Source of the DNA: Rossellomorea orangium
GTDB lineage: Bacteria > Bacillota > Bacilli > Bacillales > Bacillaceae_B
Length of the DNA: 64,000 nt
Reading direction: 5' to 3'
Assembly (NCBI RefSeq): GCF_019334305.1
Contig: NZ_JAHWGH010000008.1
Location: forward strand, 124,001-188,000
Shown here: positions 5,192 to 49,857 of the stretch, one piece after another
Numbering within the stretch: position 1 is the first letter of the stretch
Layout: every line of letters begins with the position of its first letter
Notes under the pieces: model-generated
Databases searched by the model: none
What the model was told of the DNA's origin: nothing
Seen by the model: the letters and a program-made list of their open reading frames with translations, nothing else
Program-made: the position numbers and the translations under genes

Positions 5192-5230
5192 GACCACGAC
5201 GGGGGACTTGCCCGGCGTGGTCTTTTCTTT
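5192..5230 (+). terminator. Rho-independent terminator after the alkaline phosphatase
   Basis: GACCACG...CGTGGTC stem followed by TTTTCTTTT. The 520-bp repeat is inserted directly in this T tract. Confidence 0.88.
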
Positions 5231-5231
5231 T

Positions 5232-5753
5232 GGCTGTTTTCCCAAAGATTGTTGCTATTCGCACACAAACTAAGATTTACGATGCTCTGTCATTTAGTTG
5301 TGGTGCAGGAGGGTGAAGGGAACAGTCCCGCTTTCCACGGACGTTCGGCCGAGCTTCCTCAGCAAAAACGCTTCCGGGGTCTCGGCATGTCCGTTTTTCG
5401 TAGGAGTCTACGAAGATCCCTTCACCCTCTAAAGAAGTAAGTAGTTGACAGAGCAAAATGGTTTGTGACCATCGGTTTAAAAAGAGTAAAGGACTATTGA
5501 ATAAAATCAGTCACTGCAACGAATGAAAAAGCAGTGGCATACGCAATCTCCACATTTCCTTTGTGATAGTCAAACTTTTCGTCAGTTGATTGGAGCGGAT
5601 GGTGCTCGACTCCTGCGGGAATAGCTGGACAGGTGAGACCCCGCAGGCGAAGCCGAGGAGGCTCACCGCCAGCCCCGCGGAAAGCGAGCACCTGTAGCGG
5701 AAATCAACCGCCACTCGCTACATCCAAAAGCAACAATGTTTACTAAGACAGCT
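5232..5753. repeat. 522-bp non-coding repeat element, copy 1 (MITE-like)
   Basis: This block matches 33086-33608 almost end to end, roughly 90% by eye. The ends are imperfect inverted repeats: GGCTGTTTTCCCAAAGATTG on the left against CAATGTTTACTAAGACAGCT on the right. It is flanked by identical 8-bp sequences TTTCTTTT at 5224-5231 and 5754-5761, as expected of a target duplication. Inside are two large inverted-repeat modules: a GAGGGTGAAGGGAAC arm at 5309-5323 pairing with one at 5415-5429, and a GC-rich branched module at about 5600-5705. Open frames inside are not convincing genes. The right end touches the stop codon of the sspH-like gene. Related GC-rich modules are, from memory, common in Bacillaceae intergenic regions; function unknown. 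Confidence 0.85.
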
Positions 5754-5760
5754 TTTCTTT

Positions 5761-5940
5761 TTATACCTCTTCTAAATCAGAAACACTTACTTCTGAACGT
5801 TCTTCCAAAGGCCCTCGAAGATGCACAACAGCCGTTTTTCCGTCTTCTGATACAGAGTCGATCCAAACGGATGCATCTTTGTATTTGACCTGGATGTCTG
5901 CTGAAGAAGATAAGATCTGTTTTACTCGATTTTGGTCCAT
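5761..5940 (-). CDS. sspH: Small acid-soluble spore protein, H type
   Basis: A 59-residue frame reading MDQNRVKQILSSSADIQVKY onwards and ending SDLEEV. Length and pattern match the H-type SASP family (SspH): an N-terminal RVKQIL-like helix, V-W-I-D, then a C-terminal V-S-L-E-E segment. H-type SASPs are made in the forespore late in sporulation; their role is minor or unclear. CCTCCT at 5949-5954 is a strong ribosome site on the minus strand. The repeat element ends eight bases past the stop codon, so the gene's native terminator may have been displaced. Confidence 0.85.
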   Translation of the reverse strand: MDQNRVKQILSSSADIQVKYKDASVWIDSVSEDGKTAVVHLRGPLEERSEVSVSDLEEV

Positions 5941-33053: not shown

Positions 33054-33081
33054 AAAAGACCTTTTTAAAGAGGGTCTTTTT
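33054..33081 (+). terminator. Rho-independent terminator after yusE
   Basis: AAAGACC...GGGTCTTTTT stem and T tract. The second 520-bp repeat is inserted in this T tract. Confidence 0.85.
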
Positions 33082-33085
33082 GTTT

Positions 33086-33608
33086 GGCTGTTTTCGCAAA
33101 GATTGTTGCTATTCTCATACAAACCAAGATATACGATGCCCTGTCATTTAAGTTATGGTGCAGGAGGGTGAAGGGAACAGTCCCGCTTTCCACGGACGTT
33201 CGGCCGAGCCTCCTCAGCAAAAACCGCTTCCGGGGTCTCGGCACGCCTGTTTTCCGTAGTAGTCTACGCAGTTCCCTTCACCCTCTGGAGTAGTATGTGT
33301 TGACAGAGCAAAATGGTGTGTGACCATCAGTTTTAAAAGAGTATGGGACTATGAAATAAAATCAGTCACTGCAACGAATGAAAAAGCAGTGGCATACCCG
33401 ATCTCCACATTTCCTTTGTGATAGTCAAATTTCGCGTCAGTTGATTGGAGCGGAAGGTGCTCGACTCCTGCGGGAAACGCTGGACAGGTGAGACCCCGCA
33501 GGCTAAGCCGAGGAGGCTCACCGCCAGCCCCGCGGAAAGCGAGCACCTGTAGCGGAAATCAACCGCCACTCGCTACATCCAAAAACAACAATGTTTACGA
33601 AAACAGCC
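33086..33608. repeat. 523-bp non-coding repeat element, copy 2 (MITE-like)
   Basis: Second copy of the 5232-5753 element in the same orientation. Ends GGCTGTTTTCGCAAAGATTG and the inverse of GGCTGTTTTCGTAAACATTG match at 21 of the outer 23 positions when the arms are aligned. Identical 8-bp sequences TTTTGTTT flank it at 33078-33085 and 33609-33616. Internal inverted arms GAGGGTGAAGGGAAC at 33164-33178 and GTTCCCTTCACCCTC at 33271-33285 are perfect. A second GC-rich branched module lies at about 33445-33565. No real coding frame is seen. It appears better preserved than copy 1. Confidence 0.87.
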
Positions 33609-33834
33609 TTTTGTTTTTATACTTTGGACATTTTAGCATTTTTCTTTCTACATTCGCAGACATATTTCTCGGGAAATGGTTCGAATCCCCTCATTTTTTG
33701 ACCTTCCATCATCCAAATTCTTACTGTTCGACAAATTTGATACATCCGTTCAAAACATGTCGAGAATGTTTAAAAGGGAATGATCACCTGAAGTGGAATT
33801 GTAAGTATATAGAAGTTTCACTGGGAGGGTATTC

Positions 33835-34188
33835 ATGCGACTATATTTAGAGGAATTAGTAGATCAGTGTCATTCAAGATACCATTTACGACTCTTGTTT
33901 CCAGACAGCCCATTTATCCTTCATTTTCAACGCAGGGATTGGATCTATGGAATTTCCATTTCGAACAGCCGTTGTGCAGTATTAGAAGATATAATGCCTG
34001 AAGCACATTTTGTGATCGAGGGAGAAGAGGGGGATATCATTTCTCTGTTGACAGGTGAAGAGCGATTGTCCCAACTGGTTGAAAAAGGAATCCTTGAAGT
34101 CAGGGGAGGATACCGCCCGCTGCTATTTGTGGAGTCGGTGCTTTGGTTGACAAGGTCCAGGGTGAAGGAACCGGTTAAAGTGTCATAA
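33835..34188 (+). CDS. yusD: Conserved hypothetical protein YusD
   Basis: 117 residues starting MRLYLEELVDQCHSRYHLRL. By position between yusE and metN it corresponds to B. subtilis YusD. The fold, with a HFVIEGEEGDIISLLTGEERL segment, recalls SCP2-like lipid-binding domains, but this is a weak resemblance. GGGAGGG precedes the ATG. It lies outside the S-box-controlled met operon. Function unknown. Confidence 0.72.
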   Translation: MRLYLEELVDQCHSRYHLRLLFPDSPFILHFQRRDWIYGISISNSRCAVLEDIMPEAHFVIEGEEGDIISLLTGEERLSQLVEKGILEVRGGYRPLLFVESVLWLTRSRVKEPVKVS

Positions 34189-34290: not shown

Positions 34291-34457
34291 TACTCTTATT
34301 TAGAGAGGTGGAGGGACGTGCCCTATGAAGCCCGGCAACCGTCAATGAAAATTGAAATGGTGCCAATTCACTCAAAGCGATTGCTTTGAAAGATGAGAGA
34401 AAGGATAGTCCTATATATGATTATGCCTTTCTGCTTATCGCAGGAGGGCATTTTTTT
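34291..34457 (+). promoter_or_regulatory. SAM-I (S-box) riboswitch with terminator
   Basis: The aptamer shows the S-box landmarks: CTTATTTAGAGAGGTGGAGG, then GACGTGCCCTATGAAGCCCG, GCAACC, and closing GATGAGAGAAAGG, spanning about 34291-34404. A transcription terminator follows (ATGCC...GGGCAT with seven T, 34423-34457). When S-adenosylmethionine is plentiful the aptamer closes and transcription of metNPQ stops. Confidence 0.95.
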
Positions 34458-49599: not shown

Positions 49600-49857
49600 C
49601 CACATCATCAGTCCGATGGGGTAGAGGCGCAGGGTTCAAGAGTAATCTGTTCGAGGATGACAACGAAGAAAACAGATGAAAGGGAATCTTTGCCGAAGTA
49701 AATATGCTTGTCAAAGGGATATTTGCTGGGGTTGTCTTGAAGAAGGATAACACTGTCATTATAGGGAAATCTCTATAATGGGGAGCTACAGATCGTGATG
49801 GAGCACTTACGTTACTAACAAAGGTAATGATAGTTTCTCTATCGTTGCCTTTTTTTA
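49600..49857 (+). promoter_or_regulatory. Lysine riboswitch (L-box) with terminator
   Basis: Aptamer at about 49600-49800 with the L-box landmarks GTAGAGGCGC, AGAGTAATC, AAGGGAATCTTTGCCGAAG, TGCTGGGGTTGTC, CACTGTCATTATAG and GGGGAGCTAC in the expected order. A terminator follows (GGTAATGATAG...CTATCGTTGCC and seven T, 49822-49857). Lysine binding should stop transcription of the following transporter. Confidence 0.93.

What the first reader, a model, noticed from the sequence alone, without database searches (positions are those of the whole stretch)
5224..5761. A 522-bp structured non-coding element with terminal inverted repeats and 8-bp target duplication
Seen: copies at 5232-5753 and 33086-33608 match end to end. 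Each starts GGCTGTTTTC and ends with the imperfect inverse. Each is flanked by its own identical 8-mer (TTTCTTTT; TTTTGTTT), placed exactly at the inverted-repeat borders. This is the anatomy of a non-autonomous transposable element. Unlike most MITEs, it contains two elaborate GC-rich inverted-repeat modules that could fold into branched RNA. No transposase is in the window. I recall the GC-rich core as a common Bacillaceae intergenic repeat that yields spurious proteins; I do not know it described as a mobile unit with these borders.
Basis: partly seen in the sequence, partly recalled or inferred. Interest (0 to 1): 0.72.

Follow-up and report, generated by a model that had tools for sequence, protein, structure and literature searches.

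The report
Mini jumping DNA with RNA-like hairpins
This is a 522-base gene-less DNA insertion, present in many copies in its genome and likely moved by the enzyme of a larger jumping gene (IS1595 family), whose hairpin core occurs in 311 of 397 sampled genomes of its bacterial order and is predicted to fold as RNA.

Summary
Both copies (5232-5753, 33086-33608) carry ~26-bp terminal inverted repeats and perfect 8-bp duplications, and relatives have empty sites with one copy of the target. The element is best read as a MITE of the IS1595 (ISXO2-like) family: IS1595 transposons in three genomes of the genus, two with full-length transposase genes, have nearly the same ends (up to 25 of 26 bases) and perfect 8-bp AT-rich duplications. 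No such transposase was found in the window's own draft genome. The two GC-rich modules are diverged, inverted copies of one structure. A covariance model of module 2 matches 311 of 397 genomes of the order (109 of 135 genera). Of 109 modules picked by that model's score, 74 lie beside one of two classes of IS1595-type ends, so the common Bacillaceae repeat is largely the core of such MITEs. Module 2 covaries strongly (21 of 28 pairs with two-sided changes, none of 500 shuffles). G-U exceeds A-C on one strand, and 47 loci point with transcription against 15 opposed; a smaller set gave 12 to 6. RNA-level selection is likely but unproven. A MITE is a known kind; this covarying core shared by two TIR classes was not found in 10 open-access literature searches.

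The parts
5224..5231 (.). left target-site duplication of copy 1 (TTTCTTTT)
   Evidence: 8/8 match to 5754-5761; one copy of the target at the empty site in relatives
5232..5257 (+). left terminal inverted repeat, copy 1
   Evidence: 24 of 26 bases identical to the left end of the IS1595-family transposon L226
5284..5454 (+). module 1, copy 1: GC-rich hairpin, diverged inverted copy of module 2
   Evidence: alignment to the reverse complement of module 2 scores 62, direct 19; R1 matches it on the minus strand only, 5312-5426
5510..5539 (+). small hairpin between the modules
   Evidence: read from the fold of the whole element
5585..5708 (+). module 2, copy 1: covarying hairpin found across the order
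   Evidence: R1 match, 152.2 bits; covariation
5728..5753 (-). right terminal inverted repeat, copy 1
5754..5761 (.). right target-site duplication of copy 1
33078..33085 (.). left target-site duplication of copy 2 (TTTTGTTT)
   Evidence: 8/8 match to 33609-33616; single copy in G006, L253
33086..33111 (+). left terminal inverted repeat, copy 2
   Evidence: 25 of 26 bases identical to the left end of L226
33138..33309 (+). module 1, copy 2
   Evidence: alignment to the reverse complement of module 2 scores 63, direct 18; minus-strand R1 match 33167-33282
33440..33563 (+). module 2, copy 2
   Evidence: R1 match, 152.6 bits
33583..33608 (-). right terminal inverted repeat, copy 2
   Evidence: 24 of 26 bases identical to the left end of L228
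33609..33616 (.). right target-site duplication of copy 2

Best explanation
The 522-bp element is a non-autonomous transposable element with IS1595-family (ISXO2-like) ends that has inserted at many AT-rich sites, likely moved in trans by an IS1595-family transposase. Shown: ends that match IS1595 transposons of the same genus, 8-bp AT-rich duplications, and empty sites in relatives. Inferred: the transposase binds the ~26-bp ends, excises or copies the element and joins it to a staggered 8-bp cut; the donor has since been lost from this genome, never resided in it, or is missing from the draft. The internal modules are a structure shared by two classes of IS1595-type MITE. The 522-bp form looks like two inverted halves, each made of an end, about 50 bp and a module. 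Inferred with less confidence: module 2 is kept as a folded RNA, read in the direction of the neighbouring genes, which would make insertions in that direction better tolerated or useful, for example as a stable structured 3' or intergenic RNA.
For: 8-bp duplications at the exact borders. Empty sites for copy 1 in G006 and G020, with the same joint seen but more diverged in G015 and G022, and for copy 2 in G006. IS1595-family transposons L226 and L227 (335-aa transposases) and L228 (286-aa ORF) have ends matching 22-25 of 26 bases at the window's copy-2 left end, and perfect 8-bp duplications. A Peribacillus element with an 8/8 duplication has a 92-aa ORF weakly resembling the IS1595 domain (18.2 bits, under the cut-off). 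Of 109 modules picked by model score, 74 have a class A or B end alongside, against 8 of 436 control positions and 5 of 109 with letters reversed. Covariation: 98.0% of cells paired, 21 of 28 pairs with two-sided changes, 0 of 500 shuffles as high, collapse when slid; 18 of 28 pairs in the alignment not fitted to the structure. G-U 49 against A-C 8; in strand-neutral pairs 30 against 3, or 11 against 3 as distinct types. Orientation 47 sense against 15 antisense, p = 6e-5.
Against: No IS1595 transposase was found in the window's draft genome, so present mobility is unproven. The element shares only about 28 end bases with the IS, so it is not a simple internal deletion of it. 35 of 109 modules had no recognisable end. 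The alignment was fitted to the structure, and relatedness inflates such counts. The orientation bias is weaker outside the genus (25 to 11, p = 0.03) and not significant in the set found by ends (12 to 6, p = 0.24), where module-less elements give 8 to 6. The minus-strand fold energy of module 2 is lower than the plus-strand one in alignment A1 but higher in A3. Module 1 shows no clear strand preference. No promoter inside the element stands out from shuffles.
Confidence: 0.87

Rival explanations
1. It is a purely selfish MITE; the palindromic modules are kept only because folded DNA aids transposition or copying, and the RNA is irrelevant.
For: The modules are shared by two classes of MITE and not found within the six IS1595 copies tested, as a feature of non-autonomous elements would be. 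The orientation bias is not significant in the set found by ends.
Against: A DNA hairpin should show no strand bias: G-U exceeds A-C 30 to 3 in strand-neutral pairs and orientation to genes is biased 47 to 15. Sequences and loci are not fully independent.
Confidence: 0.3
2. The module is an independent mobile repeat (REP-like) that inserted into MITEs several times and moves by another enzyme.
For: 35 of 109 modules lack recognisable ends; solo modules exist in the window's genome (L079-L082); another 117-bp hairpin repeat does appear inserted in module 2.
Against: The module faces the same class A end in 22 of 27 rows, at a spacing of about 45-50 bp in those read by eye. Some solo modules keep traces of the right end.
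Confidence: 0.15
3. The driver is an ISL3-family transposase, which also gives 8-bp AT-rich duplications and GGCT ends (recalled).
For: Similar duplication length and first bases (recalled).
Against: No ISL3 match in the window's genome; 6 of 36 genomes in the genus have one. The stretches around those 16 ISL3 matches (L100-L115) give no TIR pair and one single end hit, in L105, whereas IS1595 elements have the matching ends.
Confidence: 0.02
4. Segmental duplication or chance repeat without transposition.
For: Only two copies lie in the window.
Against: Empty sites, 60 ends in the genome against 1 in the control, duplications 66 of 140 against 3 of 1400.
Confidence: 0.01

Closest known systems
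IS1595 family (ISXO2-like) insertion sequences
   Same: Ends, 8-bp duplication and AT-rich target match those of L226-L228; the L226 and L227 transposases match PF12762.
   Different: No transposase; internal GC-rich modules that were not found within the six IS1595 copies tested.
Bacterial MITEs in general (review PMC10969869, passages read)
   Same: Small, no gene, inverted repeats with direct repeats, stable stem-loops, AT-rich targets.
   Different: The review calls MITEs typically AT-rich; here a GC-rich core with compensatory changes, matched in 109 genera and shared by two end classes. 522 bp is long for a MITE (recalled).
bcr1-bcr18 repeats of the Bacillus cereus group (PMC6542083, passages read)
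   Same: Interspersed repeats of 100-400 bp in Bacillus with mobile traits.
   Different: [quoted passage not shown] here 8-bp duplications and IS1595-type ends.
Bhal-1 stem-loop family of Bacillus halodurans (PMC2267715, table passages read)
   Same: Folding repeat of a Bacillus.
   Different: 74 bp; its sequence was not seen, so identity with the module core is untested.
Bacillaceae-1 RNA (Rfam RF01690; PMC2864571, table passage read)
   Same: A structured RNA of Bacillaceae that sits as an apical insert in two modules of L294.
   Different: Covers only the insert; no Rfam family matched module 1 or 2 of the window copies.

Membership tests
MITE of the IS1595 family | terminal inverted repeats like those of an autonomous IS1595 element | tested here: met
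   copy-2 left end 25 of 26 to L226, copy-2 right end 24 of 26 to L228
MITE of the IS1595 family | 8-bp target duplication (family value recalled; five of the six IS1595 elements seen here have it perfect, one 7/8) | tested here: met
MITE of the IS1595 family | no transposase gene of its own | tested here: met
   among ORFs of 60 aa or more, only ones of 63-69 aa inside the copies and two that run across a border
MITE of the IS1595 family | empty orthologous sites | tested here: met
MITE of the IS1595 family | mobilised by the IS1595 transposase | not testable with these tools
   needs a mobilisation assay
MITE of the IS1595 family | internal homology to the parent IS beyond the ends (not obligatory) | tested here: not met
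   identity by eye ends after about 28 bases
ISL3-derived MITE | ends match an ISL3 element | tested here: not met
bcr repeats | TTTAT motif repeats tied to mobility | tested here: not met
   duplications are varied 8-mers; definition from PMC6542083 passages
REP/BIME with RAYT transposase | associated Y1 (RAYT) transposase and tag | not tested
   no search for the Y1 transposase was run
known Rfam RNA family | match over the gathering score | tested here: not met
   for the window copies; among the related loci scanned the only match inside modules is the Bacillaceae-1 insert in L294

The most novel reading that the evidence does not exclude
Module 2 is an undescribed structured RNA class, spread through most of the order by riding inside two differently ended kinds of IS1595-type MITE, and kept by selection on the folded transcript in the direction of host genes: an RNA domain that travels on parasitic DNA and is repeatedly kept by the host.
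Probability: 0.35. Interest if true: 0.85.

Novelty: new variant of a known kind. Interest (0 to 1): 0.62.

Why it matters
It gives a mobile-element origin to a GC-rich repeat that recurs through Bacillus-like genomes. It names the likely enzyme. It also makes a testable claim: that a covarying hairpin carried by MITEs is selected as RNA, with a measurable strand bias. If true, a very large number of loci across the order would gain a common, checkable structure.

Tried and rejected
ISL3 as the driver was rejected. An 8.2-kb pair of ends in L060 proved to hold ordinary genes (carotenoid and transporter types, by eye) and no transposase seen among its ORFs, so it is not an autonomous element. 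Terminator preference: 11 of 66 insertions have a hairpin next to the target against 30 of 990 AT-rich control 8-mers, but the controls include coding DNA, so this may only reflect where insertions are tolerated. The terminator tool calls none beside the window copies, although by eye an imperfect stem and T-run precede both. Module 1 strand preference was undecided. Promoters inside the element were not above shuffles. Phages hold no match. Fifteen plasmid records hold a match, none covering 80% of the element; the 12 listed cover the module 2 region. Literature: 10 searches listed no paper that, by title, abstract start or the passages I read in six of them, describes this element; only open-access papers are held, so prior description elsewhere is possible.

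Full report
What is there. Two copies of one element lie at 5232-5753 and 33086-33608, 92% identical. Copy 2 begins GGCTGTTTTC and ends with its exact inverse; copy 1's right end is more diverged. Each copy is bounded by its own perfect 8-mer. Copy 1 follows an alkaline-phosphatase gene and copy 2 a thioredoxin-domain gene. The window belongs to a 4.57-Mb draft genome in 33 contigs; several contigs end inside copies of the element, so copy numbers are lower bounds. The genus is probably Rossellomorea: named Rossellomorea records carry class A ends, and the relative G006 has a contig of the same length as a record of Bacillus sp. NTK074B. This identification is an inference.

Copies in the genome. 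BLAST gives 55 matches and the end pattern 60 sites against 1 for the reversed pattern. Fifteen distinct copies under 660 bp with both ends could be read: 7 have an 8/8 duplication, 1 has 7/8, 4 have 6/8 and 3 have 5/8 or less. Over every locus held, 66 of 140 end pairs, chance pairings included, have 7-8/8, against 3 of 1400 when the right 8-mer is slid. The duplicated 8-mers are AT-rich, mostly T at the start and A at the end.

Empty sites. For copy 1, G006 and G020 carry the joined flank with a single T-rich target; G015 and G022 show the same joint, more diverged. For copy 2, G006 carries the joined flank with one TTTTGTTT. G020 and G022 have a different, module-2-only element at about the place of copy 2.

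The driver. In the window's genome no IS1595 or ISL3 domain match and no L226-like transposase was found. Five of 36 genomes of the genus have IS1595-domain matches and 13 of 36 have at least a fragment similar to the L226 transposase. The six loci show inverted ends with 8-bp duplications, perfect in five and 7/8 in one. L226, L227 and L228 have ends like the window's (copy-2 left end 25 of 26 to L226); L229-L231 have a second kind, about GGCT-TGTTAA. L226 and L227 have 335-aa transposase ORFs that match PF12762 at 59 bits, over the cut-off; L228 has a 286-aa ORF, and its match to L226 starts at residue 39, so it may not be intact. A Peribacillus element with an 8/8 duplication contains a 92-aa ORF with a weak PF12762 match, under the cut-off.

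The modules. Module 1 aligns with the reverse complement of module 2 (score 62-63) and not directly (18-19, about the shuffled mean; shuffled maximum 44). The module 2 model finds module 1 on the minus strand only; that model also scores 36-40 bits on the minus strand of module 2 itself, because the hairpin is partly self-complementary, so the inversion rests on the alignment. The whole element folds far better than shuffles (z -8.6). Module 2 was aligned from 50 loci and modelled. The model matches 311 of 397 genomes drawn from the order, in 109 of 135 genera, at E 1e-4, and 104 of 398 genomes, in 35 of 146 genera, in an even draw from the class at E 1e-6, where some families outside the order also match. 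No Rfam family matched the window copies inside the element.

Where modules sit. I examined 109 modules chosen by model score: 29 of the 30 loci given (one dropped at a contig end), and 80 more of the roughly 150 matches it listed. The model was trained on modules that partly came from elements with ends. Of the 109, 74 have a class A or class B end on at least one side within about 100 bp, against 8 of 436 control positions and 5 of 109 with reversed letters; 35 have none. Class B elements also show 8-bp duplications: 8/8 in L305, L314, L322 and L323, 7/8 in L304 and L324, of six tried. In the other direction, of 100 of the 110 stretches (8 kb or less) found by the class A end alone, 45 hold at least one module match somewhere (50 matches). 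In the module-bearing class A elements whose two ends were paired, the module faces the same end in 22 of 27 rows, two elements being counted in both directions.

Is it RNA? In 81 distinct aligned modules, 98.0% of cells pair, 21 of 28 pairs have two-sided changes and none of 500 shuffles reaches any of the five measures; sliding the partner collapses the signal. That alignment was fitted to the structure; in the unfitted one 18 of 28 pairs have two-sided changes. This shows a folded single strand but not which nucleic acid. G-U pairs number 49 against 8 A-C. As the fold itself favours G-U on its own strand, I repeated the count on pairs predicted from both strands: 30 against 3 in A3 and 23 against 8 in A1. 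By distinct pair types this is 11 against 3 and 14 against 7, so the support is moderate. The fold energies of the two strands do not decide: minus is lower in A1, plus in A3. For module 1 the two strands give similar counts.

Orientation to genes. Of 89 flank-independent loci with an ORF on both sides, 47 lie between two genes reading in the module's direction and 15 between two reading against it (p = 6e-5); 16 and 11 are mixed. Split by genus, the window's genus gives 24 to 5 and the others 25 to 11 (p = 0.03). An earlier count gave 29 to 7 of 47 loci, with only exact duplicates removed. The bias is thus clear in one set and only suggestive in the other.

Reading. The element is a MITE with IS1595-family ends. 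The broadly conserved core, shared by two end classes and biased in strand, is most simply read as a structure that these MITEs carry and that is selected as RNA. A DNA-level role in transposition remains the main rival. I call it a new variant of a known kind.

Noticed in passing
L011:1902-2018 and G000 C6:134386-134747, C14:4770-5133, C33:4212-4575, C9:180679-181168, C8:54886-55297: Five long-form copies (~649 bp where both ends are read) carry a 117-bp hairpin inside module 2 at GCTGGACAG. That hairpin is a separate repeat with 69 matches in the genome, in places in tandem arrays with a period of about 125 bp; no Rfam family reached its gathering score there.
   Followed up: partly
L294:935-1628: Three modules in tandem class A elements; two of them hold the Rfam Bacillaceae-1 RNA (RF01690) as an apical insert, so that RNA may travel on these MITEs.
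   Followed up: partly
L042, L043, L080: A solo module appears at what looks by eye like an orthologous place in three species, with the module more alike than the flanks: a candidate kept by the host.
   Followed up: no
L060:1097-9306: Two left-type ends 8.2 kb apart with 7/8 matching flanks enclose carotenoid-type and MATE-type genes (named by eye from the translations); no transposase seen.
   Followed up: partly
window 34293-34399 and 49614-49796: SAM and lysine riboswitches; a 117-aa ORF (33835-34188) lies between copy 2 and the SAM riboswitch.
   Followed up: no
window 5249-5440, 5494-5714, 33084-33293, 33349-33569: Short ORFs of 63-69 aa on both strands inside the element, a likely source of spurious protein annotation.
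   Followed up: no
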